Of a stretch of 64,000 nt of DNA, positions 5,973 to 64,000 are shown in pieces. Numbering within the stretch: the first letter of the stretch is position 1; the number at the start of each line of letters is the position of its first letter. The DNA is taken from positions 18,835 to 82,834 of the IMG/VR virus record IMGVR_UViG_3300037087_000046; one strand, 5' to 3'. The translations under genes were made by a program, and so were the position numbers. Below the pieces are notes generated by a model that had not been told where the DNA came from, searched no databases, and saw only the letters and a program-made list of their open reading frames with translations. This DNA comes from a virus.

Positions 5973-6816
5973 AGAAATCCCCATCCAAGATATTGTCCCC
6001 ACGAAGCATCTTCTACGCCCCGTCAATAAAAAAAGCAAAGACTACATAGGAATTTTAGAGGCCATCCGAACCTCTGGATTTATGGGGGCAATTGATGTAC
6101 GCCCAAATAAAACTAAATTCGAGGTGGTGGATGGTATGCACCGTTTTGAAGCAGCCAAGCAACTACGGTTATCCTCTATACCCTGTAACATTTCTGAGCG
6201 TAGTGATGAAGATGTTATGCGATTGCAGATTGTCAAGAATCTGCATAAAGTAGAAACAACCCCCATGCAGTATGCTAAACGGCTGTTGCAAATAAGTGAA
6301 AATAAACACTTGACAAACGCGCAACTTGGTGATATGATATGTAAGGACAAATCGTGGGTATCATATACCCTTCAACTTGCCCGTAACATCACTGACCCAG
6401 CACTGATTAAAATGATTGATTCCGGGCAGATTGAAGTTAATACGGCATGGATACTGGCACGAATTAACCCGGTTACGCAAGAGTGGATTGACTATGCGCT
6501 TACGTTACCCAGGCATGAGTTCCTTGTGCGGTATAAGTCTTATCTTCGTAATGAAAGGGGGAAATTTGGCGCAAAAGAAAAAAAGGTATTTGAACCTGTA
6601 GCAACAATGCGTTGGATGAAGGACATCCTTAAAGAGATTAAGGAGCCGGATGAGATACTATCGTACAGTATGTACGATAGTATGACACCGTTAGACGCAG
6701 CAGTAATGGCTCTAAAGTGGGTAGTCCACTTAGACCCTAAAAACCTAATAGAGCAAGAAAACAAATTCCTTGCAAGAAAGACAGCAAATGACAAACGAAG
6801 TAGTCAATTACAATGA
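5965..6816 (+). CDS. ParB-like DNA-binding protein, copy 1
   Basis: 283 residues from TTG at 5965, which overlaps the upstream stop. The N-terminal ParB/Srx-like domain includes GFMGAIDVRP and VVDGMHRFEAAKQL (the GxHR-type box) near residues 35-65. A helix-turn-helix region follows (LTNAQLGDMICKDKSWVSYTL near 115-135). Such proteins bind DNA sites and some act as CTP-dependent clamps or nucleases; here the role could be segregation, transcription control or replication. A second relative lies at 11935. A 12-bp perfect hairpin lies inside the gene at 6655-6683. Confidence 0.85.
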   Translation: MLKEIPIQDIVPTKHLLRPVNKKSKDYIGILEAIRTSGFMGAIDVRPNKTKFEVVDGMHRFEAAKQLRLSSIPCNISERSDEDVMRLQIVKNLHKVETTPMQYAKRLLQISENKHLTNAQLGDMICKDKSWVSYTLQLARNITDPALIKMIDSGQIEVNTAWILARINPVTQEWIDYALTLPRHEFLVRYKSYLRNERGKFGAKEKKVFEPVATMRWMKDILKEIKEPDEILSYSMYDSMTPLDAAVMALKWVVHLDPKNLIEQENKFLARKTANDKRSSQLQ

Positions 6817-7483: not shown

Positions 7484-7749
7484 TCTTGCATAGGTTGGCC
7501 CCTATGTATCAAGGCGGGTTTGACTATAGAGTGGATACCACTCGCTCCGGCTTATGTGCAACAAGGAATCAGAGAGCCTACTGCTTAGCCACCAGAGGGC
7601 GTTTTTCCGGGCATGTAGCATACTTGGAAAGCAACCCGAACACCACTGTAAAAGTGGTCTTGTAGTGCCCTGTAGTCGGGGTAACGGAGGCGGACTACTG
7701 CCGCCAGCAAAGCCACCCACCGGAATATCCGGTGGGTGGTATATTTTAA
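7484..7749 (+). ncRNA. Candidate structured non-coding RNA with its own terminator
   Basis: A 278-base interval without a convincing gene. It is rich in self-pairing: CATAGG with CCTATG (7491-7506), ACCACT with AGTGGT (7641-7656), GTAGTC with GACTAC (7671-7698), possible GGGCATGTAG with GTAGTGCCC, then a 12-bp terminator stem. Open frames across it on both strands have unnatural composition. It does not match tmRNA, 6S, RNase P or group I intron cores known to me. A separate promoter is possible near TTTGACT (7519) but is not convincing. Confidence 0.55.
7713..7748 (+). terminator. Rho-independent terminator
   Basis: A perfect 12-bp stem (CCACCCACCGGA, loop ATA, its complement) followed by TATATTTT. 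It ends the non-coding region or the upstream operon. Confidence 0.85.
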
Positions 7750-8245: not shown

Positions 8246-8694
8246 ACATTCTTACTGGCCCCGTGGTGAATTGGACAATGTTTGTTACGGAGTGCCAACG
8301 GGTATTGGGGCACAGTCCAACGCGTATCTTGGATTGCCTTGGTATCAAAACTGAAAGCCCGTTGGCACTGTTACTTACCATCCCGGTAAGTAACAAAGAA
8401 CAGAAGGCTTCCCTTAGTATCCTAAAAGAATCTAAACTTGACCACTACTACCTAACTATGTTGATGACTTGTGAGAAGCATGAGTATCCTGCAAACTTAG
8501 CCGAGGTGACTCAGCTAAGAGTACACCATGTTGAAGGTGATGATGAATGTGTGGCATTCATTACAGGGTCGATGAAGGATTGGATAGAGACTATTATCAT
8601 CATGGAACGTGATGATAAACAGGTAAAGAATTTTAAAACTCTGGCTCTACAACAACTAAAGATGCTTGATTACTACGAGGTTCTCAATGGCTGA
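8236..8694 (+). CDS. Hypothetical protein
   Basis: 152 residues, not recognised. The C-terminal half looks helical. It directly precedes the helicase with an 8-base overlap, so it is probably co-translated. It contains a 9-bp perfect hairpin near 8377. Confidence 0.6.
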   Translation: MLVNILTGPVVNWTMFVTECQRVLGHSPTRILDCLGIKTESPLALLLTIPVSNKEQKASLSILKESKLDHYYLTMLMTCEKHEYPANLAEVTQLRVHHVEGDDECVAFITGSMKDWIETIIIMERDDKQVKNFKTLALQQLKMLDYYEVLNG

Positions 8695-10534
8695 AATAAA
8701 AGTTCGAGTAGGTAATAGCCGTATTCCAATTCAAGTAGAAGAACGTGGCTCTCGCCTATTCCTTCATTTTGGGTACAACCCACAACTTATTAAGGAAGTA
8801 AAAGGACTTGCTGGGGCAAAATGGCACCCGGAAGAAAAAGAGTGGTCAATCACTAAAAACCAGCGGAATGATTTTCAACTACGATGGATGCAGTGGGCAG
8901 CATTGGATGCTTCCAATAGGGAACCTATTGGAAATCCCTTCCATCGTTATGACGAGGATGTTACTGGGTCATGGGAAACAACCCGGTCTTTGTATCAGCA
9001 TCAAAAGGATGCTGCCCTACACGTAGCACAGCGTAAGTATGGTATTCTGGCATCTGAGATGGGTTGTGGGAAGTCCTTGGTAGCGATTGACGTTGCGGAG
9101 AAGGTTAAACCAGCCAACGCGTGGTACGTAGGCCCACGGGCAGGCGTAAAGGCTTTCTCAAGAGAGTTGGTGAAGTGGGGCTGCACCGTACAGTTCAAGA
9201 TGATGACTTACGAGGGTCTAATCAAGGTTCTTAAAGATTGGGATGGTACCAATGTTCCTCAGTATGTTGTGTTTGATGAGAGCAGCCGAATTAAAATTGC
9301 CTCAGCACAGCGTAGTCAAGCAGCAAAGTATTTGGCAGATGCAGTCCGTGAGGCATGGGGTGATGAAGGTTATATTGTCCTTATGTCCGGTACACCTGCA
9401 CCTAAATCACCTGACGATTGGTGGCACCAATGTGAGGTTGCTTGTCCTGGGTTTATTAAGGAAAAGAACTCCAATGACCTTAGGGCACGCCTTAGTCTGA
9501 CGGAAGAACGAACAAGTATTTCTGGACAAACCTACAGGCACCTGATTACATGGCTGGATGATGAGACTAAGTGCGCCCTATGTGGGGCACACAAGGATGT
9601 ACATCCAGACGACCACCCGTTCAAACCATCCGTTAATGAGGTTAGTAAGTTGTATCGACGGTTGAATGGATTGGTGCTGGTACAGTTCAAGAGAGATTGT
9701 CTTGACCTTCCTGAGAAGACTTACGAGATTGTCCGTCTAACCCCTACACCAGAAATACTTCGTGCTGCAAAATTGGTTGAAGCAAAAGCCACAAGAGCAA
9801 TAGAGGCACTTACATGCCTTCGTGAATTGTCAGACGGATTTCAATATGCGTTTGAAGAAGTAGGAAACGAGCCGTGCCCAAGTTGTAAGGGAGAGGGTTC
9901 AAAACTATCTGAGTGTCCAGGGGAAGGAGTTATTACTTGTGATTATTGTTCAGGGGAAGGCACCGTGCCAAGATACACCCGCATCGTTGAAGAATTGGAG
10001 ACTCCGAAAGATCAAATCTTCCTTGACGAGTTGGACGCGCACCTTGATGGTGGCCGTCTGGTTGTATGGGGAGGATTTACTGGGACGCTTGACCGATTGG
10101 TTAAGATGGCTCACCAAAACGGATGGGCGACCCTCCGGGTGGATGGTAGAGGTTACGCGGGTGAATCTGAAAAAGGTGAAGTAATTGACTCAGATGTGTT
10201 GCTTGATGCAATGGATTTAAGCAACCCTAAGTATCAAGAACTTCTTGACATTTATCCCAGAGTATGTTTTATTGGTAATCCTCAAGCGGGTGGTATGGCT
10301 CTCACGCTAACCGCATCTCCTACCGCGTTGTTCTACTCAAACTCTTTCTCAGGAGAAGCACGTATCCAGGCTGAAGATCGTATCCACCGTGTTGGGATGG
10401 ATAAGAACCGAGGTTGTATTATCAAAGACATTGTTATGCTTCCAACTGACCAATTAGTGTTGGATAACCTGCTTAAAAAGAAGCGACTTCAGTCGCTTAC
10501 ACTGGGGAAGATTTTTAATGGAAACAGAGAATAA
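8687..10534 (+). CDS. SNF2/DEAD-type helicase with a DnaJ-like zinc cluster
   Basis: 615 residues from ATG at 8687, preceded by GAGG. Superfamily 2 motifs: Walker A ASEMGCGKS near 122, motif II VFDES near 193, motif III LMSGTPAPKS near 227, motif VI AEDRIHRVGM near 565. An N-terminal region with AKWHPEEKEW resembles the HARP-like domains of SNF2 annealing helicases. Between the two RecA lobes is CPSCKGEG ... CDYCSGEG (about 396-425), a DnaJ-type double CxxCxGxG site, preceded by CALCGAH. Likely a DNA-dependent ATPase acting in phage replication or recombination. Confidence 0.9.
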   Translation: MAEIKVRVGNSRIPIQVEERGSRLFLHFGYNPQLIKEVKGLAGAKWHPEEKEWSITKNQRNDFQLRWMQWAALDASNREPIGNPFHRYDEDVTGSWETTRSLYQHQKDAALHVAQRKYGILASEMGCGKSLVAIDVAEKVKPANAWYVGPRAGVKAFSRELVKWGCTVQFKMMTYEGLIKVLKDWDGTNVPQYVVFDESSRIKIASAQRSQAAKYLADAVREAWGDEGYIVLMSGTPAPKSPDDWWHQCEVACPGFIKEKNSNDLRARLSLTEERTSISGQTYRHLITWLDDETKCALCGAHKDVHPDDHPFKPSVNEVSKLYRRLNGLVLVQFKRDCLDLPEKTYEIVRLTPTPEILRAAKLVEAKATRAIEALTCLRELSDGFQYAFEEVGNEPCPSCKGEGSKLSECPGEGVITCDYCSGEGTVPRYTRIVEELETPKDQIFLDELDAHLDGGRLVVWGGFTGTLDRLVKMAHQNGWATLRVDGRGYAGESEKGEVIDSDVLLDAMDLSNPKYQELLDIYPRVCFIGNPQAGGMALTLTASPTALFYSNSFSGEARIQAEDRIHRVGMDKNRGCIIKDIVMLPTDQLVLDNLLKKKRLQSLTLGKIFNGNRE

Positions 10535-12678: not shown

Positions 12679-15032
12679 AAACTTATTTTCTCGACACAGA
12701 AACAGTTGGTCTAACAGGCCCGGCAATCCTCATTCAGTATGCCATTGATGATGGCCCGATTACCCTTCACGAAGTCTGGAAAGAACCAATCGGTAAGACT
12801 CTTGACCTGATTGAAGATGTGGCTAATAATGCCATTATTGGGTTTAATCTTTCATTTGACTGGTTTCAACTATATAAGTTGTATACCATGTTTTCGGATG
12901 AACCAAGAGATAATCCTCCTACGGAGGATTATTCCTATTGGGCAAAAAAAGAGATGGCTGGTAGAGACCATCCTAATTGCCTGAAACCTGCACATGTACT
13001 TGACCTTCTTCTACATGCCCGTAAAGGCCCGTATCAGTCCACAATGGATAGGTCTGACATCCGTATCAAGAAAGTACCGAAGGCTCTTGCTCAGTCCCTC
13101 TGTGATGAACTGTCAGAACGTATCCCCTTGAAGGATGTGTACTTTGCCCGTCGTAAAGACAAAACTGTTCGTTGGCAAGTATTTGAAACAAAAGAGATTG
13201 ACCCGGTTTCTGGTAAAGAAAAAGTTTGTGAAGATTTCCGGGACATCGTTCTGAAGTTCTCTCCTTCCAGCGCATTGAAGGCTCTTGCCGTAGATGCTCT
13301 TGGTCTGGACGTTACCAAGTTTGATGATATTAGCATCGGGCATCCTCTTGAACGCGGCTATGCCCCTTATGCGTTAGCGCCGTTTATTGCCAGTAAGAAA
13401 GAAGGTACTGTTGCGCCAATTGAGGAAGATTTAGATTGTATAGTATCGTCCGTGGACGATACTATCTCTTTGGATGACAATGACCCTAACGAGTCATTGA
13501 TTCCCGGTACAACCTATTACCCCTCACCAACTAACTGGTACGGCAAATGGCCCGAAGTAATCTCTAAGCACATTGAACATTGGGGCACACACAAGGAGGC
13601 AAGAGAGTATGCGGAGAATGACGTTGTATACACTCGTGGACTGTACCATTTTTTTAACAATCCTGTTCTTGATGACATTGATAGTGTTCTTGCTTGTATG
13701 GTGGCAACCGTCCGCTGGCGTGGTTTTAAAGTAAATATTGAAGCACTGAAGAAACTGAAAGAGTCCGCACAAGAACGTATCAGTGGGAAGTCTTTTAACT
13801 TTCAAGCAGCGGCTGAGGTTCGCAAGTATCTGCATGAAGTAATGTCCCCTATGGAACAAAAAATTATTGGGGGCAGCACTAAGTCAGAGGTACTTGAATC
13901 CATTGTGAAGTGGGGTGATACTGAAGCCTCTAAACGTGCTGCTGAAGTATTGGATGCCCGACATGCCAAAAAGGAAATTGAGATTTATGACAAACTTCTT
14001 CTTAGTGATAGGTTTCACGCTTCTCTCAATGTTATTGGGACACTTAGTGGGCGTATGTCTGGATCAGATGGACTCAACCCCCAAGGAATAAATCATGGTA
14101 AACACGTCAGAAGTTGTTTCCCATTAGCATGGGATGGTTTCCAATTGATTGGAGGGGACTTTGCATCCTTCGAGGTCTGTATCGCGGATGCTGTTTATAA
14201 TGACCCTGTTTTGCATGATGAGTTGCTTGCTGGTGGTAGCGTACATGCCCACTTTGGAACGTACATGTTTGATAAGTCCTATGAGGAGGTCTGTGCTACC
14301 AAATCGCTTCCGGGGGAACAGAATCTTTACTCCCGTGCTAAACAAGGAATCTTTGCCCTTCTGTATGGAGGAGAAGCCTTCACTATTTCCAAGAGATTAG
14401 GCGTTTCAGAGGCTAAAGCGGAAGACGGCTTCCAACAGTTCATTAAGAAGTACAAAGTCCTTGGAAACGCCCGTAAGGGCTATGCTGACCTGTTCTGTTC
14501 CATGAAGCAAACCGGGGAGATTGGTTCCCCCATCACTTGGGCTGAACCCGCTGATTATGTTGAGAGTAAGTTGGGACACAAACGATACTTCACACTGGAA
14601 AACAGCATCTGTAAGGTACTCTACAAACTGGCAGAGAAACCTCCTGCCGAATGGCTCAAGATGAAGATGAAGGTTACACGCCGCGATAGAGTACAAACAA
14701 CCAGTGGTGCAGCGCGTAGTGCTTTATTCGCTGCCGCGTTTGCTGTTCAAGCTTCTAACATGCGTGCTGGGGGCAACCACGTTATTCAGTCTACTGGTGC
14801 AGGGCTTACCAAACTCCTTCAGGGTAAAATCTGGGAGTTGCAACCAAGTGGTGCAGCACCCTGGGTCGTACAACCTCTTCAGATTCACGACGAAATCCTT
14901 TGCCCCACTTTACCTGAACGAGTTGAAGAAGCCAACAAAATCGTAGCAGACTTTATCCAAGAGTACCGGGCTATTGTGCCGCTTCTTGAAATCGAATGGA
15001 AGGACGACCTAAAGACATGGGCAGACAAATAG
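12675..15032 (+). CDS. Family A (Pol I-like) DNA polymerase with 3'-5' exonuclease
   Basis: 785 residues from GTG at 12675 (AAGGAG seven bases upstream). Exonuclease motif I is FLDTET at residues 5-10 and motif II is GFNLSFDW near 56. Polymerase motif A is GGDFASFEV near 494, motif B is RAKQGIFALLYGG near 555, and motif C is IHDEIL near 738. No 5'-3' exonuclease domain is present, as expected for phage replicases. It works with the primase-helicase on the opposite arm. Two perfect hairpins (12910, 10 bp; 13440, 12 bp) lie inside the gene. Confidence 0.95.
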   Translation: MKTYFLDTETVGLTGPAILIQYAIDDGPITLHEVWKEPIGKTLDLIEDVANNAIIGFNLSFDWFQLYKLYTMFSDEPRDNPPTEDYSYWAKKEMAGRDHPNCLKPAHVLDLLLHARKGPYQSTMDRSDIRIKKVPKALAQSLCDELSERIPLKDVYFARRKDKTVRWQVFETKEIDPVSGKEKVCEDFRDIVLKFSPSSALKALAVDALGLDVTKFDDISIGHPLERGYAPYALAPFIASKKEGTVAPIEEDLDCIVSSVDDTISLDDNDPNESLIPGTTYYPSPTNWYGKWPEVISKHIEHWGTHKEAREYAENDVVYTRGLYHFFNNPVLDDIDSVLACMVATVRWRGFKVNIEALKKLKESAQERISGKSFNFQAAAEVRKYLHEVMSPMEQKIIGGSTKSEVLESIVKWGDTEASKRAAEVLDARHAKKEIEIYDKLLLSDRFHASLNVIGTLSGRMSGSDGLNPQGINHGKHVRSCFPLAWDGFQLIGGDFASFEVCIADAVYNDPVLHDELLAGGSVHAHFGTYMFDKSYEEVCATKSLPGEQNLYSRAKQGIFALLYGGEAFTISKRLGVSEAKAEDGFQQFIKKYKVLGNARKGYADLFCSMKQTGEIGSPITWAEPADYVESKLGHKRYFTLENSICKVLYKLAEKPPAEWLKMKMKVTRRDRVQTTSGAARSALFAAAFAVQASNMRAGGNHVIQSTGAGLTKLLQGKIWELQPSGAAPWVVQPLQIHDEILCPTLPERVEEANKIVADFIQEYRAIVPLLEIEWKDDLKTWADK

Positions 15033-17175: not shown

Positions 17176-17608
17176 TACAGCAGAATCAGTATTTGCAAAA
17201 TACGAAGGACTGGTGTATGCGCAGAAATTGGCTCGGCGGAGCGAAGACCTCCGAAGTGAAGCAACTCTTGCCCTTTGGTTAGCAGCGTTAAATATTGCCA
17301 AGGGCAATATTTCCAAAGAGCACGAACTGCCATACATATTGTCGTGTGTCAACAAGGGGATGTTGAAATACGCTATAGCGAACTCCTCCCTACGGCTTGA
17401 GAGGGAAGGCAGGGATGAACGAACATCATTGTCCGTGTATACGGACAATCAGTTTGTTAATGAAACCTTTGACAATTATCGCCATAGGGAAGTGGCACAC
17501 TTGCTTCTGGATGGGTATTCAACAACCCAAATAAGTAAAATATTGCATATCTCACCACAAGCAACTCGCTTGCGTATCCGTGGAATAAAGGAGGTGCTCC
17601 GTGGATGA
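17159..17608 (+). CDS. Sigma-factor-like protein
   Basis: 149 residues from ATG at 17159 (AGGAG seven bases before). FAKYEGLVYAQKLA then EDLRSEATLALWLAALNI and ELPYILSCVNKGMLKYAI resemble sigma70 region 2 (the DLxQEGxxxLxxA and YxxxxIR stretches). The C-terminus, VAHLLLDGYSTTQISKILHI then ATRLRIRGIKEVL, is a region-4/LuxR-like helix-turn-helix. Length and two-part layout fit a small ECF-type sigma. It could direct transcription from the non-standard late elements at 43799 and 48292; that link is inference. Confidence 0.65.
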   Translation: MPEKNSTAESVFAKYEGLVYAQKLARRSEDLRSEATLALWLAALNIAKGNISKEHELPYILSCVNKGMLKYAIANSSLRLEREGRDERTSLSVYTDNQFVNETFDNYRHREVAHLLLDGYSTTQISKILHISPQATRLRIRGIKEVLRG

Positions 17609-18403: not shown

Positions 18404-18404
18404 A

Positions 18405-18677
18405 TTGCGATATGAAGCCAACAAAATATATGATAGTATGGGGAATGTGTTTGACTCAAATATGTATCAACAGGCACGGGAGTATTTTAATAGCGTGCTA
18501 TTAAAAGAGCACTGTGAGGAACTTGGTGTAGACCCTGAAGAACTTTTGTTGGAATACCGAGAAGCCGTAGCGGCACGTAAGGAACCAGGAGCCAAACGTA
18601 GAGCATTAGCGTCGGCATTGCTATTGAAGATTGCTCGCAAACGAGAGCACCTCGTGCGTTACGAAAGGGCTGACTAA
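18405..18677 (+). CDS. Hypothetical helical protein
   Basis: 90 residues if it starts at TTG 18405 (GGGGTGGGA upstream); ATG at 18435 is an alternative. The rest is charged helices (YQQAREYFNSVLLKEHCEEL, YREAVAARKEPGAKRRALA). A 10-bp perfect hairpin lies at 18485-18506. Unknown. Confidence 0.5.
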   Translation: MRYEANKIYDSMGNVFDSNMYQQAREYFNSVLLKEHCEELGVDPEELLLEYREAVAARKEPGAKRRALASALLLKIARKREHLVRYERAD

Positions 18678-21488: not shown

Positions 21489-21995
21489 ATGCACCATGAG
21501 GATAATTTTGCTACCGCAAAATTATGTAGTGCCGGGGTATTGACGATTGGGTATGGGCACACAACTACTTTCGGATTCCCGAAAGTAGTTCCTGGCATGA
21601 AAATTTCCCAGCCAGAAGCCATTATTCTTCTTTACAAGGATACCAAGAAGGTGTATGATGGTATATATCCAACGGTGAAACAGTTGGATATACTTCAACA
21701 AGCAGCATTAGTATCCTTTGCATACAACATTGGGATTGAGGCATTCGACAAGTCCGCTGTAGCAATTAGGCTACGCGATTGGAAAGACCCACCTGATAAC
21801 CTGTGGCAATATGAGTGTTTGGAAATGCACCTGTTGAGGTGGGATAAAATCGGCAAGACGGTTGCACCTGGGTTGGCCCACCGGAGAGAGAGCGAAGCGT
21901 GGATATTACTGTGGCAACAACATCTGATGGAAAGTGTAGTATACAGTGTTCCTTATATTGCAAAACTGGGTATTATAAAGATTATTGCCAATTAA
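21489..21995 (+). CDS. GH24-type phage lysozyme (endolysin), start uncertain
   Basis: From ATG 21489, Glu 4, Cys 13 and Thr 19 fit the E-8-(D/C)-5-T catalytic spacing of T4/P22-type lysozymes, followed by IGYGHT. AALVSFAYNIGIEAF and the late HRRESEAWIL are further family blocks. The ATG lacks a ribosome site and leaves only three residues before the catalytic Glu. In frame upstream, IVVLLAILLLM would supply the usual helix, but no ATG, GTG or TTG follows the stop at 21450. Initiation may be non-standard. It would hydrolyse peptidoglycan at lysis. Confidence 0.85.
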   Translation: MHHEDNFATAKLCSAGVLTIGYGHTTTFGFPKVVPGMKISQPEAIILLYKDTKKVYDGIYPTVKQLDILQQAALVSFAYNIGIEAFDKSAVAIRLRDWKDPPDNLWQYECLEMHLLRWDKIGKTVAPGLAHRRESEAWILLWQQHLMESVVYSVPYIAKLGIIKIIAN

Positions 21996-22296: not shown

Positions 22297-22546
22297 AGAC
22301 TTACAAGTTGGAGATGTTATTGCTGGGCACGAGGTTTATAGTGTACAGTCGGCAATACTTTTTACCCTTGTCTGCATGGAAAAAGAAGGTAAACATTATG
22401 CACCGGAGTTTCTCAACGAAATGGAAATCAACGTTGAACGACCTGAGTATGTTAAGGTGAATAAAGAGTTGGTAAGACGTGCCATTGATTGTCTTGGTGG
22501 GTCAAGGTGTTCTAGTGACGCAGAGGAACTGGAGAAACTCCTTTGA
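22280..22546 (+). CDS. KAKDLxVGD-type protein, copy 1
   Basis: 88 residues from ATG at 22280 (AAGGA upstream). MLIKAKDLQVGDVIAGHEV matches the N-terminus of the product at 23129, showing internal duplication on either side of thyX. The KxxDLxVGD start is common in phage proteins of unknown function. Confidence 0.6.
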   Translation: MLIKAKDLQVGDVIAGHEVYSVQSAILFTLVCMEKEGKHYAPEFLNEMEINVERPEYVKVNKELVRRAIDCLGGSRCSSDAEELEKLL

Positions 22547-23145
22547 AAATAGTCCCACAAAGTATTGAGTTAATTGACATCACACCAAATGCAGTACAGA
22601 AGATTGCCAAGATTGCAAGAGTGTGTTATCAAAGTATGGGCAATGAGGAAGAGAATATTAACTTACTCCGTAAGTTAATTGCTCGTGGTCATCTATCCCT
22701 CTTGGAACACGCCTCAGCAACATTCCGTATTATCACTGACCGGGCAATCGCAAATGAATTAACCCGCCATCGTCATGCCTCGTTTGCCCAGGAGAGCACA
22801 CGGTTCTGTTCGTATGATGAATTGACAGTTATTCGGACACCAGAAGAATTACGTATTGTAGATGGTAGATATCCTGCTCCTGAATGGGTAGTTTCTATGC
22901 AGTCATGTATGAAAAGTTATAGAGACCTTCTTGCTAAGAAGGTCTCACCCCAGATAGCCCGTAGTGTACTTCCTTTGTGTCTTAAAACAGAATTGGTTAT
23001 GACTGCCAACTTCCGGGAATGGAAGTATATTTTAGACTTACGCAGTAAGTCTAATTGCCATCCTCAGATGGTTGAACTTATGAAGATGATAGGTGAGGCA
23101 CTCACCTATCAAGTACCGGAGGTATTCAATGATAGTCAAGGCTAA
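22543..23145 (+). CDS. thyX: Flavin-dependent thymidylate synthase
   Basis: 200 residues from TTG at 22543 (GGAG upstream). RHRHASFAQESTR at residues 75-87 is the ThyX signature (RHRxxSxxxxSxR), which binds FAD and dUMP; HLSLLEHAS near 50-58 and RELLPL-like SVLPLCLKTELVMTANFREW are further family blocks. ThyX makes dTMP from dUMP with methylene-tetrahydrofolate and NADPH. It belongs to the dNTP-supply cluster with NrdD/NrdG. Two 11-bp perfect hairpins lie inside (22922, 23087). Confidence 0.95.
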   Translation: MKIVPQSIELIDITPNAVQKIAKIARVCYQSMGNEEENINLLRKLIARGHLSLLEHASATFRIITDRAIANELTRHRHASFAQESTRFCSYDELTVIRTPEELRIVDGRYPAPEWVVSMQSCMKSYRDLLAKKVSPQIARSVLPLCLKTELVMTANFREWKYILDLRSKSNCHPQMVELMKMIGEALTYQVPEVFNDSQG

Positions 23146-25783: not shown

Positions 25784-25816
25784 ATCCGGTCAGCGTTATG
25801 CTGACCGGATATTTGT
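25784..25816 (+). terminator. Rho-independent terminator
   Basis: Perfect 11-bp stem ATCCGGTCAGC, loop GTTAT, complement, followed by ATTTGTGTCTT. The weak T-run suggests moderate strength. Confidence 0.7.
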
Positions 25817-30328: not shown

Positions 30329-30365
30329 AAAAGCGCATAGGACACATGTCCTATGCGCTTTTTTA
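30329..30365 (+). terminator. Strong rho-independent terminator
   Basis: AAAAGCGCATAGGAC, loop ACAT, perfect complement, then TTTTTT. Ends the nrdD transcript immediately upstream of the next promoter. Confidence 0.92.
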
Positions 30366-30395
30366 TTGACAGTAAAGAGTCTAACGTGTTAGACT
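30366..30395 (+). promoter_or_regulatory. Promoter with the longest palindromic operator
   Basis: TTGACA at 30366-30371, 18-bp spacer, TAGACT at 30390-30395. The operator is a perfect palindrome of 28 bp (30373-30400, 13-base arms around GT), with the core AGTCTAACGTGTTAGACT. Confidence 0.85.
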
Positions 30396-30421
30396 CTTTA
30401 TGTCTGAAAGGAGACACACAT

Positions 30422-31692: not shown

Positions 31693-31718
31693 CAGTAGTC
31701 AGTGTAGCATGCTACACT
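31689..31718 (+). promoter_or_regulatory. Promoter with a variant palindromic operator
   Basis: TTGACA at 31689-31694, 18-bp spacer, TACACT at 31713-31718. CAGTGTAGCATGCTACACTG (31700-31719) is a perfect 20-bp palindrome of the same layout as the AGTCTAAC type but with different arms. TTTCTCGTAG follows. Confidence 0.8.
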
Positions 31719-31752
31719 GTTTCTCGTAGGTCAACTCAAAGGAGACAAAACA

Positions 31753-34281: not shown

Positions 34282-34803
34282 ATGCAATTCATAGGAATAC
34301 AACCATGCTCCCTTGTTGATTGGCCTGGGCACCCTTGTGTAACCGTTTTTACACAAGGGTGTAACATGCGCTGCTACTATTGTCATAACAATTTTGGCAA
34401 CAGTGGTACACTGTTGGACTACATGCAAGATATTATTTCTTCTCCATTGCACTATGTAATTATTTCTGGTGGAGAACCTACCATACATAATGACTTGCCC
34501 GAATTGGTACATGATTTACGGTACTACCGTAAGAAGGTAGGTGTACACACCAATGGAACAAATTTACAGTCCTTAAAGGACTGTCAGTTTGACTATATCG
34601 CTATGGATATTAAGGCACCGTTGGACAAGTACGAACTGGTTACCAGTTCGTTATTTGCCCCCTCGTCAAAGGTAATCAAATATGTTCGGGAGCATCCCGA
34701 ACATACCTTCCGCTGCACCCTAAATAAACACTTGACAAAGGACGATGAACAACGTATCATTGATCTTGTTGGTGAGGATGTTAAATTCCAAAAGGAGAAT
34801 TGA
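34282..34803 (+). CDS. nrdG: Anaerobic ribonucleotide reductase activating enzyme (radical SAM)
   Basis: 173 residues. FTQGCNMRCYYCHN near 28-41 is the CxxxCxxC cluster site; IISGGEPTI near 63 and VGVHTNGTN near 90 bind SAM. It generates the glycyl radical on NrdD. Several perfect hairpins lie inside (13 bp at 34330, shorter ones at 34632 and 34685). Confidence 0.88.
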   Translation: MQFIGIQPCSLVDWPGHPCVTVFTQGCNMRCYYCHNNFGNSGTLLDYMQDIISSPLHYVIISGGEPTIHNDLPELVHDLRYYRKKVGVHTNGTNLQSLKDCQFDYIAMDIKAPLDKYELVTSSLFAPSSKVIKYVREHPEHTFRCTLNKHLTKDDEQRIIDLVGEDVKFQKEN

Positions 34804-37602: not shown

Positions 37603-38316
<714 letters not shown>

Positions 38317-42907: not shown

Positions 42908-43312
42908 TTACAGGTCATTTAAAGCTTCTTTCTTATTAGTCCCCTGCACAGTGCCAAGAACCAACTCAATAGCAATTTTCTCTGCTACAATGGTGATGCA
43001 CCGTTCAATTATATCAGACATAATTTTACCTGACATGTGCAGACCCACCAAATCATGGTCAGTGATTTCAACCACATGGTCTTTCCCATTGAAAGTAAAC
43101 TTATACACCAAAGACATGTAAAAATCTTTATGGTATTCATAAAGATTACCCAAAATCAGGTCTGGAGTATAAGCAGTCAACACAAGATTCCGCATTATTT
43201 TGTCTTTTAGGGAATCTAACTCATTCAAACTGGACGAAGTGTTAGGGGTATGGATGTCTACCTTTTGTGGATAATTTGGTGCAGTGTGTACGTTATAGAA
43301 GTTATTAAACAT
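42908..43312 (-). CDS. Hypothetical protein, first gene of block 3
   Basis: 134 residues; AAAGGA precedes the ATG. Contains GKDHVVEITDHDLVGLHMSG. It is nearest the leftward promoter at 43342-43371. Unknown. Confidence 0.65.
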   Translation of the reverse strand: MFNNFYNVHTAPNYPQKVDIHTPNTSSSLNELDSLKDKIMRNLVLTAYTPDLILGNLYEYHKDFYMSLVYKFTFNGKDHVVEITDHDLVGLHMSGKIMSDIIERCITIVAEKIAIELVLGTVQGTNKKEALNDL

Positions 43313-43647: not shown

Positions 43648-43679
43648 TATAGTCTATCCAACGAGTTGGATAGACTATA
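43648..43679 (+). promoter_or_regulatory. Perfect palindromic operator facing the late block
   Basis: A 14-base arm (TATAGTCTATCCAA), CGAG, and its exact complement. A TAGACT box lies in the right arm, but the -35 at the 18-bp position (TTATAG) is poor. It could be an operator of a weak or activated rightward promoter. Confidence 0.6.
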
Positions 43680-43761: not shown

Positions 43762-43798
43762 ATAAGACCCTGAAAAGGGTCTTATCACAACCTTTTAC
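43762..43798 (+). terminator. Probable terminator between operator and late element
   Basis: ATAAGACCCT, GAAA tetraloop, AGGGTCTTAT, then CACAACCTTTTACTTTTT. The stem is perfect; the T-run is displaced, so termination may be partial. Confidence 0.5.
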
Positions 43799-43920: not shown

Positions 43921-43957
43921 GGCACACCCGCCTATTAATAGGCGGGTGTGCCTTTTT
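43921..43957 (+). terminator. Very strong terminator before the late operon
   Basis: GGCACACCCGCCTATT and its exact complement (16 bp), then TTTTT. It lies downstream of the late element and only 14 bases before the first late gene. Confidence 0.9.
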
Positions 43958-51409: not shown

Positions 51410-53121
51410 TGGATTTTATAAAGCACCCAGACGCATACAATCAAACCCTTGAGTGGGAGAAATGGCGGTACACTGCTGAGAGTGGGCAGGATTTTATAAA
51501 TCGCTATCTAAAGCAATTCTCTGCACGAGAAGAGGCTTTGAGTTTCCTACGACGCAAGGACATGACGTATTGTCCGGCGTATGCGAAGGGAGCGTTAAAC
51601 GATGTGAAGAATGCCATTTACCAGCGCATGGCAGACATTATCCGTGAAGGTGGCCCAGAGTCTTACATGACGGCGGTTCGTCGTAATGTGACTCGTAAAG
51701 GCCAGGATATGAACTCCTTCATAGGTTATAGCGTCTTGCCGGAGTTGTTGGTAATGGGCCGCGTAGGGATTTTCGTAGATAGGGAACCCCTACCGAGTTT
51801 TGCAACGAAGAAGGACGCTGCTGCGAATCCCCCTTATCTCTACATCTACCCAGTGGAAAAGATTCTAAACTGGGCGTATGAAAAAGATGAATTGGTTAGT
51901 GTTATGTTGGAAGACACTGTTCCTATTTACGATGAGGACACGTTGCTTCCTGTAGGGGAAAAAACATCTCAACGTCTTTTAAATAAGACGGAAAACGGTG
52001 TAAGGGTCCGTATTTTCAGCGGGGGCAAAGAAGCAGAACAGGATTACATGTTGGACATTGATAAAGTCCCATTTGTAATTTTTGATATTAAGCAATCCCT
52101 ACTTACGGATATTGCGAACTATCAAATTGCACTGATGAACTTGGCAAGTTCCGACCTTAATTACTGCTTCGTTGCCAACTTCCCTTTCTTGACGGTAAAT
52201 ACAAACCCGATTGAAGATTACGGAATGGGTCAGGCTAATGTATCTTCTGTTAGTTATGAGAATGGTTTGACTGAGGGGCCTGATGGGGCGGTAAATATAA
52301 CTCCTGTTTCAACTACCATTCAGAACATGGATGACGTTAAGACAAAAGTCAGTCCAAGTATGGGGATGAAGTACGGTATAGGTCTTGAGAGACCGGGGTT
52401 TATTTCACCACCTACTGACCCATTAGTCGCGAGCATGAAGAAACAAGCAGAGATGAAGGATGAGATTAAGCAGTTGCTTAATCTGTCTCTCTCTTCTATG
52501 GGCGATTCCAAAAGTAAGGAAGAGGGGTTGTCCTTCATCGGCCAAGAGTTGGAACGTGGGGAGCGTGAGATTGCAGCAGTTTGGGGACAGTATGAAAAGT
52601 CCAATCTTCAAGCAGTCATCAAGTACCCCAATAACTACTCACTTAGAACGGACGGTGAGCGTTTTGTTGAAGCAGAGATGTTATCCGCCATTGCACCCAG
52701 TCTTCCCTCTCGAACAGCAAAGCGGGAACTTACTAAGTCAATCACTCGTTTGTTACTTGAGAACAAAGTATCTCCTGAGACGATGCGAACTATTCTCGTA
52801 GAGATTGATAAGGTAGAGAACGTGGTTACTGACCCGAACGTGTTGGCGATGGACTATAGCAACGGGGTGGTAAGTGAGGAACTCTACAGCAAGTTGCGTG
52901 GTTATCCTGAAGGTGAAGTAGCCAAGGCTCGTATAGACCATGCAGAAAGAGCAGCACGCATTGTGTTGGCTCAGACAAGCGCTTCTATGCAGAATCCAGC
53001 GGCTCGTGGTGTACCGGATGTATCAGTAGATTCCAGTGAACCCACAACGGAGAAAACACTCTCTCAGGATGCAGCAATGTCAAGAACGGCAGAACGAATG
53101 GTACGAGGAGAAGGAAAATGA
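51409..53121 (+). CDS. Portal protein, DUF4055-like
   Basis: 570 residues. LLVMGRVGIFVDREPLP near 105, YPVEKILNWAY near 150, FVIFDIKQSLL near 223 and DLNYCFVANFPFLTVN near 245 fit the DUF4055 portal-like family; position after terL agrees. Forms the dodecameric DNA channel. Confidence 0.88.
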   Translation: MDFIKHPDAYNQTLEWEKWRYTAESGQDFINRYLKQFSAREEALSFLRRKDMTYCPAYAKGALNDVKNAIYQRMADIIREGGPESYMTAVRRNVTRKGQDMNSFIGYSVLPELLVMGRVGIFVDREPLPSFATKKDAAANPPYLYIYPVEKILNWAYEKDELVSVMLEDTVPIYDEDTLLPVGEKTSQRLLNKTENGVRVRIFSGGKEAEQDYMLDIDKVPFVIFDIKQSLLTDIANYQIALMNLASSDLNYCFVANFPFLTVNTNPIEDYGMGQANVSSVSYENGLTEGPDGAVNITPVSTTIQNMDDVKTKVSPSMGMKYGIGLERPGFISPPTDPLVASMKKQAEMKDEIKQLLNLSLSSMGDSKSKEEGLSFIGQELERGEREIAAVWGQYEKSNLQAVIKYPNNYSLRTDGERFVEAEMLSAIAPSLPSRTAKRELTKSITRLLLENKVSPETMRTILVEIDKVENVVTDPNVLAMDYSNGVVSEELYSKLRGYPEGEVAKARIDHAERAARIVLAQTSASMQNPAARGVPDVSVDSSEPTTEKTLSQDAAMSRTAERMVRGEGK

Positions 53122-54332: not shown

Positions 54333-55664
54333 ATGGCTAATGATATTAGTGCGTTTATCCCAGAAGTCTGGGCGCAAGAATCTCTTGCAATCCTTGAAGA
54401 AAACACTGTCGCTGCCAACCTGGTCAACCGTGATTTTGAAGACCGAGTTGCTAATTTTGGAGATGTTGTAAATACCCGTAGTATCACCAAGGTCGAGGCT
54501 GACCGTTGGCAATCGGGCGATATTTCGCTGAGTGATATTACTTCTACCAATGTGGCAGTACCGCTTGACCAGTTGGGTGTCAAAGCATTCATTATCAATG
54601 ATAAAGACATGTCTATGTCTATGTCCGATCTGTTTGCAACCTATCTGAAGCCGCATGTTCAGGCCATTGCCCGCCAGATTGATGAGACTCTCATCAACCA
54701 AAAGTATCAGTTCCTTACCAACTGCGTAGGTAAAATTGGTACGGCGTTGACTAAGGACTCCGCAGTCGCGGTTGATAAGTTCTTCACTGACAAAAACGCT
54801 AATGGCTCCCGGTATGCGCTGTTGTCTGCTGCCCAGAAAGCAGACCTGCTGGGTGAAACCCAATTCACTGATGCTTATCGTCTTGGTGATGGCGGTTCGG
54901 CTCTTCGTGCGGGTTCTCTGGGTGAATTGTATGGTACTAACTGGCTGGTGGCACAGAACAACAAAACGGTGGCTTCCGGTAATACCACTATTACTGCTGC
55001 TGTGAATCATGTTGGTGGCTATGCGGCTGGTACTACGGCGATTGTTATTGATAGCACGTCTACTGCTGGTACTGCTGGTGGTTGGTGTACTATCGCTGGC
55101 GATATGACCCCGCAGCGTATTACGTCTTGTACCACGACTGCATTGGTTATCAGCCCCGGCCTTCGTAATGCAGTTGCGAATGATGCGGTTGTTACCTTCT
55201 ACACCCCCGGCACTGTCAATCTGTCCGCTGGTTATGCTGCTGGGTTTATTGACCCGATTGTTACGGGGACGTTCTCGGTGGCTCCTCAGAAGGGACAACT
55301 GGTGTCCTTCGGTACGGGTACTTCGGTGTATGGTGCGATTGGTACTCCTACCACGACCTCTCTGAAGGTTGACCGTCCTTTGGCGGTTGCCCTGACAAAC
55401 AGTGAAATCGTTGGTGTCGGCCCGGCTGGTAACTATGGGTTCGCCTTCACGAAGGACGCGCTTGCCCTTGTTTCTCGTCCGCTTGCCCTGTCTCCGGCTG
55501 GTGCTGGTGCTACCAGTTATGTTGCCAGTTACAATGGTCTCTCCGTTCGTGTGTCCTTTCAGCAGGACTTGCTCAAGAGCGGCGGTGGCATGATTGTTAA
55601 GGTTGACACGCTGTATGGTGTGAAGGCGCTTAACACCGACGCTGGCTGCGTCATCCTCTCCTAA
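54333..55664 (+). CDS. Major capsid protein, P22 coat-like
   Basis: 443 residues. FIPEVWAQESLAILEENTVAANLVNRDFED at the N-terminus, then VNTRSITKVEAD and QIDETLINQKYQF, match the P22 gp5-like coat family. Codon use is distinctly GC-richer than in neighbours, as expected for the most expressed gene. The 360-codon open frame on the opposite strand is an effect of this bias. Confidence 0.9.
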   Translation: MANDISAFIPEVWAQESLAILEENTVAANLVNRDFEDRVANFGDVVNTRSITKVEADRWQSGDISLSDITSTNVAVPLDQLGVKAFIINDKDMSMSMSDLFATYLKPHVQAIARQIDETLINQKYQFLTNCVGKIGTALTKDSAVAVDKFFTDKNANGSRYALLSAAQKADLLGETQFTDAYRLGDGGSALRAGSLGELYGTNWLVAQNNKTVASGNTTITAAVNHVGGYAAGTTAIVIDSTSTAGTAGGWCTIAGDMTPQRITSCTTTALVISPGLRNAVANDAVVTFYTPGTVNLSAGYAAGFIDPIVTGTFSVAPQKGQLVSFGTGTSVYGAIGTPTTTSLKVDRPLAVALTNSEIVGVGPAGNYGFAFTKDALALVSRPLALSPAGAGATSYVASYNGLSVRVSFQQDLLKSGGGMIVKVDTLYGVKALNTDAGCVILS

Positions 55665-56026
55665 TGCGTTGGGTCGATGGGGTAATCTACAGTTTGGAGA
55701 AATACCATCCGACTGAGATAACTTGGAAACAAGTCTCAGGGACTACCCCCGACCTGACCACGGGGGAAGTAACTGAGTCCAGTATCTCGATAGTGTTCCG
55801 TAAAGCGGTAGTGTTGCCCCAAGATGTGCTTGTCGCCATCTTGGGGCAAAACGATACAGATATTGACAGCCAAATATTTCTGGTGAGAGAGAAGTCTTTT
55901 AAGGGGTACATGCCCCATACCAGAGATATTATCACAATAAGTGAAGTAGAACTTATTGTGAGTAAGGTTCATAAATATCTGGATTGTTATGTGTTGATAG
56001 CCAAGGGGGTAAATGCTAATGACTGA
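55664..56026 (+). CDS. Hypothetical head-tail region protein
   Basis: 120 residues, ATG overlapping the coat stop. Position suggests a connector or stopper. Two long perfect hairpins (55814, 13 bp; 55932, 11 bp) are inside. Not recognised. Confidence 0.6.
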   Translation: MRWVDGVIYSLEKYHPTEITWKQVSGTTPDLTTGEVTESSISIVFRKAVVLPQDVLVAILGQNDTDIDSQIFLVREKSFKGYMPHTRDIITISEVELIVSKVHKYLDCYVLIAKGVNAND

Positions 56027-56976: not shown

Positions 56977-57022
56977 TTTACATACTACTGCCCGAAGTAC
57001 AGGGCAGTAGTATGTAAAACAT
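56977..57022 (+). terminator. Hairpin after the tail tube gene
   Basis: A perfect 17-bp stem (TTTACATACTACTGCCC and complement) with an 8-base loop, followed by ACATTTT. Probably reduces transcription beyond the abundant tail tube gene or protects its mRNA end. Confidence 0.75.
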
Positions 57023-57525: not shown

Positions 57526-57708
57526 ATGCCGCAAGGTCGTACTTTTAAATACTCGGTTTGGAGGGCTTGTGAAAGAATGGGTTTGAAGCCACCCGGTATA
57601 ACAGTTAAAAACTGGGAAGACCTTGATGTGGTAAGCCAGTCCAATCTTTTAGCCTATGACCAGGTAAGAGGGTACGAAGATGTTGAAATGCAGGTATCCC
57701 GTTTTTGA
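57526..57708 (+). CDS. Small tail-region protein
   Basis: 60 residues (YSVWRACERMGLKPPG ... WEDLDVVSQSNLLAY). It occupies the place of the second tail chaperone frame (gpT/gp-GT type) but has its own ATG. Function by position. Confidence 0.6.
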   Translation: MPQGRTFKYSVWRACERMGLKPPGITVKNWEDLDVVSQSNLLAYDQVRGYEDVEMQVSRF

Positions 57709-58189
57709 GGTGGATACAGTTTACTTTCAGGCAGCGGTACACGAATTGCTCTCTTCTATTTTGAAGAGAGCAATTCGTGCTTGGTATAAGGAAGTATGGG
57801 GGGATATACCTGTATGGTCGGGAATGGCACAGGCAGAATTTATTCCATTAGGAGCAACCATTGGGGATGTTCCTACCGCCCAAACTGAAATAGTTTTTGA
57901 TACAGAAGGTGTTAGGCCTTCAATGGGTAGGTCAATAGGCCAAGACTCATTCAAGATAGAAACGGGGAATGGGGTATATCACTTTAATTTTACAGTAGGT
58001 GTACCTCACACAAATATAAATAGTGGAGATGGTGCCAAGCAGATGAATCTTAAAAGACCTGTCCCTTGGCAAACTTTTGTTAAGGCAGCGGCAGCACTTA
58101 AAAATGAGATTGAGATGGTGATGCTTGAGACAAAACTTTCACGGTTATTGTCAGAATCTATCCATGTAACATATAGGGAAACACGATAA
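57680..58189 (+). CDS. Hypothetical tail protein
   Basis: 169 residues from ATG 57680. Contains LLSSILKRAIRAWYKEVWGD, encoded partly by a 17-bp perfect inverted repeat (57740-57779), and GNGVYHFNFTVGVPH. Coupled to the tape measure gene. Unknown. Confidence 0.6.
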   Translation: MLKCRYPVFEVDTVYFQAAVHELLSSILKRAIRAWYKEVWGDIPVWSGMAQAEFIPLGATIGDVPTAQTEIVFDTEGVRPSMGRSIGQDSFKIETGNGVYHFNFTVGVPHTNINSGDGAKQMNLKRPVPWQTFVKAAAALKNEIEMVMLETKLSRLLSESIHVTYRETR

Positions 58190-62859: not shown

Positions 62860-62860
62860 A

Positions 62861-63487
62861 ATGATGGAAATTAGAGACAAGGATGGGAATCTTATTAGTG
62901 GGAATACCAAGAGTCTCTTACAGAGACTCTTGGGAATTGACGTAAAGGGCTACTCTGATAACTCATTGGCTGGTAGATTCATTGTTGAGCATAGGGACAA
63001 GAGTGGAACACTCTTGTCAACTATTTCCAACCACAATGACATCACCAATGAAGGGCTTGAGTATCTGTTGAATCTGATGTTTTTTGATGATTCAGCATTC
63101 CGCCAGATTACAAACTGGTACATAGGTTTGATTAACAACTCTGGTTATACTGGTGTGGCTAATACAGACACCTTGGCAAGCCATACTGGTTGGACTGCAT
63201 TTAGCACATGGGATGAATCTGCTAAGCCTGAATGGGCACCTGAAGCGTCCTATCAGATTACTGAGGGTGGCTTGGTTAAGTACAACATCACCAACTTGAC
63301 TGCTAAGACCTTCACAATGGGCGGTGCAGCCGTTCTGAAGGGTATTTACATCAGCAGCAATTCAGCCAAGACAAGTGATACAACCGGGGTGCTTTGGTCT
63401 ACGGGTCTTTTTGATTCAACCATTGCATTGAATGAGAATGACACACTTTCCATCTACTACGCAGTAGTGGCAGGACGCGATGCCTAA
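62861..63487 (+). CDS. Hypothetical tail protein
   Basis: 208 residues. NHNDITNEGLEYLLNLMFF, NWYIGLINNSGYTGVA and YQITEGGLVKYNIT resemble a widespread phage structural family with a WYxGLI motif. Two long hairpins (62907, 62996) lie near its start. Exact role unknown. Confidence 0.65.
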   Translation: MMEIRDKDGNLISGNTKSLLQRLLGIDVKGYSDNSLAGRFIVEHRDKSGTLLSTISNHNDITNEGLEYLLNLMFFDDSAFRQITNWYIGLINNSGYTGVANTDTLASHTGWTAFSTWDESAKPEWAPEASYQITEGGLVKYNITNLTAKTFTMGGAAVLKGIYISSNSAKTSDTTGVLWSTGLFDSTIALNENDTLSIYYAVVAGRDA

Positions 63488-64000
63488 TTATGATGCCAAC
63501 GTTCGTACGAACGTTGGAATTAAAACTACCCATAACACCACTAAATGGTGTACCCATACTAACGTTAGGAATAACGTTAGTATGGGTGATGGTGTTAATA
63601 CCCTTCTGTGGTGCAACAGAACCACTGTAAAGAACCATTTCTCACTCCTATCCAGTTTTACCCATAGACGACCTCAGAAGGGTGGAACCGGATTAGGGCA
63701 AAGAATTTCCTATAAGATAGCGGGTAATAGCATACTAAATTCCCAAAGCCCTTTGGGACATAGAGGAATGGCTATCACACGTTATTCCCCTACGCATCAT
63801 ACCCGACAAGAGTTAGGAAGATTTGACACAATTACGCAGTCTTATGTACCACGAGGTGGGGACACTTATTATATTGAGTCAGAATCTTCCTCAACTGTAC
63901 CAGATACCTGTTCTCCCGTACTGAATGGTATGTATTTGATTGTGTCCTTGTTGCCAGATGATTTACCTGCTGGACTAACGTGGGATAGACCCACAGTATT
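63480..64000 (+). CDS. Hypothetical tail protein, partial
   Basis: 173 residues seen; open at the right edge. The ATG overlaps the upstream stop by 8 bases. The first third is Asn/Thr-rich (NTTKWCTHTNVRNN) and is encoded by several perfect palindromes. Not recognised. Confidence 0.6.
   Translation, partial: MPNYDANVRTNVGIKTTHNTTKWCTHTNVRNNVSMGDGVNTLLWCNRTTVKNHFSLLSSFTHRRPQKGGTGLGQRISYKIAGNSILNSQSPLGHRGMAITRYSPTHHTRQELGRFDTITQSYVPRGGDTYYIESESSSTVPDTCSPVLNGMYLIVSLLPDDLPAGLTWDRPTV

What the first reader, a model, noticed from the sequence alone, without database searches (positions are those of the whole stretch)
63480..63760. Gene start built from consecutive palindromes
Within 100 bases lie a 22-bp palindrome (63496-63517), ACACCA/TGGTGT (about 63527), a 16-bp-arm hairpin (63552-63587) and later TCCCAAAG/CTTTGGGA. 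The encoded protein is Asn/Thr-rich and unlike its neighbours. The DNA structure, not the protein, may be selected.
Basis: seen in the sequence. Interest (0 to 1): 0.5.

Follow-up and report, generated by a model that had tools for sequence, protein, structure and literature searches.

The report
Phage genes packed with perfect palindromes
The palindromes at this gene start are real, and they are one instance of a genome-wide oddity: this phage carries about thirty times more perfect DNA hairpins inside its protein-coding genes than its codons predict, most likely left and kept perfect by a copying error in which the polymerase switches templates.

Summary
A perfect 22-bp palindrome (63496-63517) and a 16-bp-arm hairpin (63552-63587) lie in an ORF starting at 63480, which continues across the end of an 82.8-kb, effectively circular phage record (344 aa). 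Of 3,000 synonymous shuffles of this gene, none gave a 16-bp arm or two arms of at least 11 bp.

The larger finding is genome-wide. Forty perfect hairpins (arm at least 10 bp, loop up to 10 nt) occur where about 1 is expected. Thirty lie in 18 called genes, against 0.9 after synonymous shuffling; ThyX has 4. In 72 control viral loci (609 kb coding) I count 11, with 9.7 expected. Arms of 5-8 bp are near chance; the excess starts abruptly at 10 bp. Loops are short, hairpins cluster, sequences are unrelated. Imperfect stems show no G-U bias. In the one close relative all 5 alignable hairpins persist; an intergenic one has mirrored arm changes and an inverted loop.

Best explanation: template switching makes and keeps the arms complementary, as proposed for Nematomorpha mitochondria. 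Selection on DNA or RNA structure is not excluded.

The parts
63480..64000 (+). target ORF, 344 aa in all; runs off the window end and continues across the record's junction to L005:624; lies just downstream of the tape measure and one more tail-region gene
   Evidence: coding signal weak at 63540-63800
63496..63517 (.). perfect 22-bp palindrome CCAACGTTCGTACGAACGTTGG (encodes ANVRTNVG)
63535..63551 (+). short stem ACACCA/TGGTGT (6 bp), alternative partner at 63590-63595; stems of this size are near background
63552..63587 (.). perfect hairpin, 16-bp arms, loop GGAA (encodes THTNVRNNVSMG)
63600..63683 (+). long-range imperfect stem, arms 63600-63612 / 63671-63683 (12 of 13 pairs)
63741..63758 (.). 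8-bp stem TCCCAAAG/CTTTGGGA
63495..63557 (+). 21-codon repeat unit 1 (ANVRTNVGIKTTHNTTKWCTH)
63558..63620 (+). 21-codon repeat unit 2 (TNVRNNVSMGDGVNTLLWCNR); a weak third unit (4 of 21 residues shared with unit 2) follows at 63621-63683
62907..62933 (.). perfect hairpin, 12-bp arms, in the gene 62861-63487
62996..63018 (.). perfect hairpin, 10-bp arms, in the gene 62861-63487
57740..57779 (.). perfect hairpin, 17-bp arms, in gene 57680-58189; same stem in relative L028
56977..57018 (.). perfect intergenic hairpin, 17-bp arms, between an AAAGGA motif and the ATG at 57026; in L028 four pairs differ on both sides, one pair is added and the 8-nt loop is inverted
55814..55849 (.). perfect hairpin, 13-bp arms, in gene 55664-56026; in L028 too
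55932..55961 (.). perfect hairpin, 11-bp arms, in gene 55664-56026; in L028 too
52463..52484 (.). perfect hairpin, 10-bp arms, in gene 51409-53121; in L028 too
43921..43952 (.). perfect palindrome outside called genes, 16-bp arms, followed by TTTTT (terminator-like)
43762..43785 (.). perfect hairpin outside called genes, 10-bp arms
43648..43679 (.). perfect hairpin outside called genes, 15-bp arms
43123..43147 (.). perfect hairpin, 10-bp arms, in the minus-strand gene 42908-43312
34681..34705 (.). perfect hairpin, 11-bp arms, in radical-SAM gene 34282-34803
34631..34651 (.). perfect hairpin, 10-bp arms, in radical-SAM gene 34282-34803
34330..34361 (.). perfect hairpin, 13-bp arms, in radical-SAM gene 34282-34803
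31700..31719 (.). perfect palindrome, 10-bp arms, between genes
30373..30400 (.). perfect hairpin, 13-bp arms, at the start of ORF 30353-31174 (start codon uncertain)
30329..30362 (.). perfect hairpin, 16-bp arms, across the start of ORF 30353-31174
25784..25810 (.). perfect intergenic hairpin, 11-bp arms
23087..23111 (.). perfect hairpin, 11-bp arms, in thyX (22543-23145)
23032..23054 (.). perfect hairpin, 10-bp arms, in thyX
22922..22946 (.). perfect hairpin, 11-bp arms, in thyX
22657..22679 (.). perfect hairpin, 10-bp arms, in thyX
21664..21692 (.). perfect hairpin, 10-bp arms, in the lysozyme gene 21489-21995
21563..21590 (.). perfect hairpin, 12-bp arms, in the lysozyme gene
21502..21525 (.). 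perfect hairpin, 10-bp arms, in the lysozyme gene
18485..18506 (.). perfect hairpin, 10-bp arms, in ORF 18342-18677
17290..17312 (.). perfect hairpin, 10-bp arms, in gene 17153-17608
13440..13465 (.). perfect hairpin, 12-bp arms, in DNA polymerase A gene
12910..12932 (.). perfect hairpin, 10-bp arms, in DNA polymerase A gene
8911..8933 (.). perfect hairpin, 10-bp arms, in SNF2-type helicase gene
8369..8395 (.). perfect hairpin, 11-bp arms, in gene 8236-8694
7713..7739 (.). perfect hairpin outside called genes, 12-bp arms
6655..6683 (.). perfect hairpin, 13-bp arms, in ParB-like gene 5965-6816

Best explanation
The palindromes at 63496-63587 belong to a genome-wide population of perfect, short-loop inverted repeats embedded in translated genes ('coding palindromes'). 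SHOWN: the excess, its independence of codon choice, its onset at 10-bp arms, its clustering, its absence from the control viral loci, and its presence in one independently assembled relative. INFERRED: most arise when DNA polymerase, copying a chance quasi-palindrome in single-stranded template (here perhaps seeded by the repeated self-complementary Asn-Val codons AACGTT of a tandemly duplicated 21-codon unit), switches to the other arm or to the sister strand and writes one arm as the exact complement of the other; once arms reach about one helical turn they keep being re-matched by further switches and so survive. Proteins accept them where codon degeneracy and tolerant residues allow. They would therefore be by-products of replication rather than regulatory elements, though individual ones (for example the one between an AAAGGA motif and the ATG at 57026) may have acquired a role.
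For: 40 perfect hairpins (arm >=10, loop <=10) against 0-3 in 10 Markov shuffles; 30 in called genes against mean 0.9, maximum 4, in 50 synonymous shuffles; 17 against 0.45 in 15 genes with independent support. 72 control viral loci: 11 against 9.7. Arm-length spectrum near chance up to 8 bp, then 14 against 1.0 at 10 bp. Loops short: 21 of 30 have 2-4 nt. Among strong stems 16 of 19 perfect. Imperfect stems >=12: G-U 4 and A-C 4, no sense-strand preference. Intergenic hairpin 56977-57018: four pairs differ from L028 on both sides, one pair is added, and the loop is the exact reverse complement, the arm-homogenisation and spacer-inversion signature described in PMC8604942 and PMC8794818 (passages). 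[quoted passage not shown]
Against: No ancestor/descendant pair shows a coding hairpin being born; all 4 coding hairpins shared with L028 have identical stems there, in DNA too similar to be decisive (0 of 102 stem bases against 40 of 1600 flanking bases, two of the flanks overlapping). The mirrored changes at 56977-57018 are many for the local divergence, so replacement by recombination is possible. Perfection is not absolute: imperfect stems >=12 are also in excess (G-U + A-C + other 27 against about 11). Hairpins favour the first 200 nt of genes (17 against 9.3, P 0.003; 10 in the last 200) and plus-strand genes (29 to 1), which a neutral process need not do. Codon scores do not show which arm was overwritten. 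One control, PMBT3, also has 4 coding hairpins against 0.5, so milder excesses exist elsewhere.
Confidence: 0.5

Rival explanations
1. RNA-level selection: hairpins in mRNAs regulate translation start, polarity, RNase processing or mRNA lifetime, and codon choice was tuned to make them.
For: Bias to gene starts (17 of 30 within 200 nt against 9.3; P 0.003) and to plus-strand genes (29:1); sense RNA of 63440-63800 folds at z -7.4; the 56977-57018 hairpin sits between an AAAGGA motif and an ATG and keeps pairing in L028.
Against: No excess of G-U over A-C in imperfect stems; antisense also folds at z -5.7; little excess of 6-9-bp stems compared with the jump at 10 bp, and no significant excess of short stems near the hairpins; unrelated sequences; no Rfam match at the target.
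Confidence: 0.25
2. DNA-level function: perfect >=10-bp hairpins are structure-recognised sites (single-strand replication starts, cruciform or resolvase sites, packaging or recombination sites).
For: Sharp threshold at 10 bp and mostly perfect arms, strand symmetry of mismatches, clustering (10 gaps <=120 nt against 2.25).
Against: No phage system with dozens of unrelated palindromes inside genes came up in the six literature searches; distant relatives with similar gene order are near expectation; no perfect hairpin in some long stretches of the same genome, e.g. about 13 kb ending at window 6654.
Confidence: 0.15
3. A local regulatory element specific to this gene start, or a structured non-coding RNA with the true start downstream, e.g. 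ATG 63769.
For: Weak coding score at 63540-63800; strong local folding.
Against: Frame open throughout with an overlapping start; 21-codon repeat with synonymous differences; same class of hairpin in 17 other called genes; no Rfam hit.
Confidence: 0.07
4. Chance or assembly artefact.
For: Metagenome record; its first 11 bases look like a fold-back artefact.
Against: Shuffles and 72 control loci from the same collection; five hairpins recur in an independent contig, one with changed arms; reading frames of conserved enzymes are intact.
Confidence: 0.03

Closest known systems
Coding palindromes of Nematomorpha mitochondrial genes (PMC6649704; abstract, discussion and passages read)
   Same: Many perfect inverted repeats inside conserved coding sequence, proteins apparently intact, near-binary perfection; template switching proposed there as one possible mechanism.
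   Different: There 110 repeats of at least 15 bp, arms averaging 43 bp (up to 142) and spacers 37 bp; here arms 10-17 bp and loops mostly 2-4 nt, in a tailed-phage genome; some imperfect excess here.
Quasipalindrome / template-switch mutations (yeast genes PMC8604942 and RNA hairpins PMC8794818, passages; E. coli PMC7202029, search listing only)
   Same: Arm homogenisation, short spacers, loop inversion.
   Different: In yeast 39 genes over a whole lineage; here 30 coding hairpins in one 83-kb genome, and no birth event observed.
Rickettsia palindromic elements (seen only as described in passages of PMC6649704)
   Same: Palindromes tolerated inside ORFs.
   Different: Those are a transposable family; here no hairpin sequence recurs.
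[quoted passage not shown] passages of PMC4060949 seen)
   Same: Over-represented close inverted repeats; some bacterial genera strongly over-represent them in protein-coding sequence.
   Different: PMC4060949 finds coding sequence generally normal; here 33-fold above the synonymous null with an onset at 10 bp.

Membership tests
Coding palindromes (Nematomorpha type) | Perfect inverted repeats inside conserved, translated reading frames | tested here: met
   17 in 15 genes with independent support against 0.45; Pfam hits for ThyX, lysozyme, radical SAM, Pol A, GT2. Translation itself not tested.
Coding palindromes (Nematomorpha type) | Long arms (>=15 bp, mean 43) | tested here: not met
   30 coding arms: 27 of 10-13 bp, 3 of 16-17 bp
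Coding palindromes (Nematomorpha type) | No excess of imperfect repeats | tested here: inconclusive
   16 of 19 strong stems perfect, but imperfect stems >=12 exceed shuffles 27 to about 11
Template-switch products | Arm homogenisation or loop inversion between close relatives | tested here: inconclusive
   Met at one intergenic hairpin (56977-57018); no informative coding case
Template-switch products | Short spacers | tested here: met
   36 of 48 whole-genome inverted repeats with arms >=10 and loop <=80 have loop <=6
Rickettsia-like mobile palindromic element | Copies of one sequence | tested here: not met
   most frequent 6-mer, AACGTT, occurs 4 times in 30 hairpins, all in the target gene
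Intrinsic terminators | Stem followed by T tract at gene ends | tested here: not met
   flanks printed show no long T tract after the coding ones; local scan found only 63758-63741 on the minus strand, at background; some outside genes, e.g. 43921-43952, do fit
Known structured RNA | Rfam covariance-model match at the target | tested here: not met
   (window 61965-64000): best 20 bits against a gathering score of 80

The most novel reading that the evidence does not exclude
A phage lineage carries a standing population of 'parasitic' palindromes inside its genes: perfect hairpins with at least one helical turn of stem, generated and re-perfected by an unusually switch-prone replication system (or an equivalent structure-recognising process), so that one arm of a gene repeatedly dictates the sequence, and sometimes the amino acids, of the other.
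Probability: 0.4. Interest if true: 0.8.

Novelty: new variant of a known kind. Interest (0 to 1): 0.6.

Why it matters
If it holds, it is a compact, potentially culturable system in which protein sequence and nucleic-acid self-complementarity are in open conflict in 18 called genes at once. It would let one measure how template switching shapes coding sequence, a question approached in the papers I saw from rare events in yeast and from hairworm mitochondria. The sharp 10-bp onset is a quantitative prediction about the mechanism.

Tried and rejected
Structured RNA family: none at the target. Homologues of the target protein: none in phages, in IMG/VR peptide-pattern scans or in 13 relative records; a 24-nt stretch of its second hairpin is not in IMG/VR. 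I suspected by eye that the 121-128-aa genes at the same place in relatives (L026, L027) were its homologues; blastp/phmmer and hhalign gave no support, so I dropped it. Hairpins as one mobile family: no shared sequence. Overwritten arm recognisable by codon usage: no difference between arms (P 0.57). Extra short stems around the hairpins: no significant excess. Pairing phase: 6/10/14, about the same proportions as in shuffles. Close relatives of ThyX by peptide pattern: none in IMG/VR. Prophage or host by terminase in bacterial genomes: none. Residue conservation in ThyX, lysozyme and radical-SAM arms against solved structures was looked at by eye and judged too weak to use. An earlier notebook entry counts five paired changes at 56977-57018; recounted from the alignment it is four changed pairs plus one added pair.

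Full report
WHAT WAS CLAIMED AND WHAT IS THERE. The perfect palindrome 63496-63517 and the 16-bp-arm hairpin 63552-63587 are exact. The two smaller stems exist (63535-63551 and 63741-63758), but stems of that size are near chance level in this genome's genes. Shuffling synonymous codons within the gene, protein and codon counts kept, gave an arm of 11 bp or more in 27 of 3000 shuffles, of 16 bp in 0, two arms of 11 in 0. So the structure is not a by-product of the protein sequence, although the repeated Asn-Val codons AAC GTT, self-complementary as written, may have supplied the seeds. AACGTT itself is not enriched in the genome (16 against 25 expected).

CONTEXT. The window is bases 18835-82834 of an 82,834-base virus record and ends at its end; the last 99 bases recur at 12-110, so I treat the record as circular, and the ORF from 63480 continues to L005:624, 344 aa. 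The first 11 bases are the reverse complement of a stretch a little downstream and look like a fold-back artefact. The tape measure (Pfam PhageMin_Tail), a tail-region gene and the target follow one another; in 4 of 13 relative records the middle gene is found, but none has the target protein (several records are fragments that stop short). Profile comparison did not connect it with the 121-128-aa genes found at that place in L026 and L027.

IS THE START TRANSLATED? The frame is open; the start overlaps the upstream stop by 8 nt. The codon score is weak at 63540-63800. Against a non-coding stretch stands a 21-residue tandem repeat: best self-match at offset 21, score 47, reached by 1 of 2000 shuffles of the protein; units 1 and 2 share 9 of 21 residues, with synonymous differences at three of them (CGT/AGG, AAC/AAT, TGT/TGC). 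I take it as coding, with moderate confidence.

THE GENOME-WIDE FINDING. Perfect inverted repeats with arms of 10 bp or more and loops up to 10 nt: 40 in the 82,724 bases, 0-3 in ten Markov shuffles; arms of 12 or more: 17 against 0-1. Inside 117 called ORFs (91% of the sequence): 30, against a mean of 0.9 and a maximum of 4 in 50 synonymous shuffles; they fall in 18 ORFs. The ORF calls are my own simple procedure and miss some genes; restricting to 15 genes supported by Pfam, by tblastn to relatives or by synteny leaves 17 against 0.45. ThyX carries four, the phage lysozyme three, a radical-SAM gene three, DNA polymerase A two, a glycosyltransferase two. Of those 15, seven have none: the tape measure, the terminase, two genes I read by eye as NrdD-like and capsid, a DUF5906 gene, one of two ParB-like genes and a PD-(D/E)XK nuclease.

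CONTROLS. With the same code (observed against synonymous mean): first 50 kb of T4 4 against 1.4, lambda 0 against 0.3, KB12-38 0 against 0.25, PMBT3 4 against 0.5 (a milder excess of its own); six distant relatives, part or whole records, 0, 1, 0, 1, 1, 0 against 0-0.4 each; the close relative G001 4 against 0.17 in 15 kb. Of 80 loci fetched by an arbitrary 14-mer, the 72 of at least 4 kb held 11 coding hairpins in 609 kb against 9.7 expected. The large excess is therefore particular to this lineage as far as sampled. A locus from a 287-kb contig, L035, has 11 such hairpins in 23 kb, only 3 of them coding.

CHARACTER OF THE HAIRPINS. Arm lengths of 5-8 bp are near the synonymous expectation (538/539, 163/140, 49/40, 16/9.5); 9 bp gives 6 against 2.6; from 10 bp the excess is abrupt (14 against 1.0, then 6 against 0.25). 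Loops: 13 of 30 have 3 nt, 21 have 2-4. Sequences are unrelated. The 40 starts show 10 gaps of 120 nt or less against 2.25 expected, a number not reached in 20,000 simulations. 17 of 30 begin within 200 nt of the ORF start against 9.3 (P 0.003), 10 end within the last 200 nt; 29 lie in plus-strand genes and 1 in minus-strand genes, which make up 21% of coding bases. Among strong stems 16 of 19 are perfect; a more permissive count shows some excess of imperfect ones (27 against about 11 at 12 bp), with G-U and A-C equal (4 and 4), so the sense RNA strand is not singled out. Both strands of 63440-63800 fold far better than shuffles (z -7.4 sense, -5.7 antisense).

THE RELATIVE. Contig L028 (another metagenome) aligns with the window over 8.5 kb at 93.6%. 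All five window hairpins of that stretch are there. Four are coding, with identical stems (0 of 102 bases changed; flanks 40 of 1600, two flanks overlapping), which by itself decides nothing. The fifth, intergenic (56977-57018), has four pairs changed on both sides, an added pair, and the 8-nt loop exactly inverted (GAAGTACA to TGTACTTC). Paired change and loop inversion are what template switching leaves (PMC8604942, PMC8794818; passages). The number of changes is high for the locality, so recombinational replacement is an alternative.

INTERPRETATION. The closest description I found in print is that of coding palindromes in Nematomorpha mitochondria (PMC6649704; abstract, discussion and passages), where perfection was taken as a sign of arm conversion and template switching was one proposed route. 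Here arms are shorter and loops tighter, which suits switching within a folded nascent strand. Steps shown: excess, onset at 10 bp, predominance of perfect stems, one loop inversion. Steps inferred: polymerase switching as the cause, re-perfecting as the reason for persistence. Results against: the 5' and strand biases, the lack of an observed coding birth, and the excess of imperfect stems. RNA or DNA function remains possible.

LITERATURE. Six searches of the open-access library returned no report of such an excess in a phage genome; this covers only that library and those terms. PMC4060949 (passages) does report bacterial genera with strongly over-represented inverted repeats in coding sequence.

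CONCLUSION. The local observation is confirmed, its local interpretation only partly; the real object is a phage genome with coding palindromes.

Noticed in passing
L005:1-11 (record start) and window 63902-64000: The record's last 99 bases repeat at its bases 12-110, and its first bases are the reverse complement of a nearby stretch: effectively circular genome with a fold-back end artefact.
   Followed up: yes
56977-57018: A 17-bp-arm hairpin lies between an AAAGGA (Shine-Dalgarno-like) motif and the ATG at 57026, so folding would shorten their distance; pairing kept and loop inverted in L028.
   Followed up: partly
37603-38316 (minus): Ala-rich ORF made of a 9/12-nt array of about 370 bases, with long ORFs open in several frames on both strands.
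   Followed up: no
41534-41617: 8-bp unit TGGCACGC repeated 10.5 times at 100% identity: a period not divisible by three inside a small ORF, a candidate phase-variable array.
   Followed up: no
30353-31174: DUF7666 domain followed by pentapeptide-like Asn-Thr-Gly-Asp-Gln repeats (15-bp unit, 13.5 copies).
   Followed up: no
27272-30289: NrdD-like ribonucleotide reductase (by eye) whose reading frame appears to hold an intein (insertion ending ..ITHN before Cys; by eye).
   Followed up: no
L005:994-1344 and L005:2918-3085: Near-identical C-terminal segment (..LNANVQFTSAGLDDISIGVAPEDYV) present on either side of a 525-aa gene, suggesting cassette exchange.
   Followed up: no
L035 (locus from a 287-kb contig): 11 perfect hairpins of arm >=10 in 23 kb, mostly outside called genes; not examined further.
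   Followed up: no
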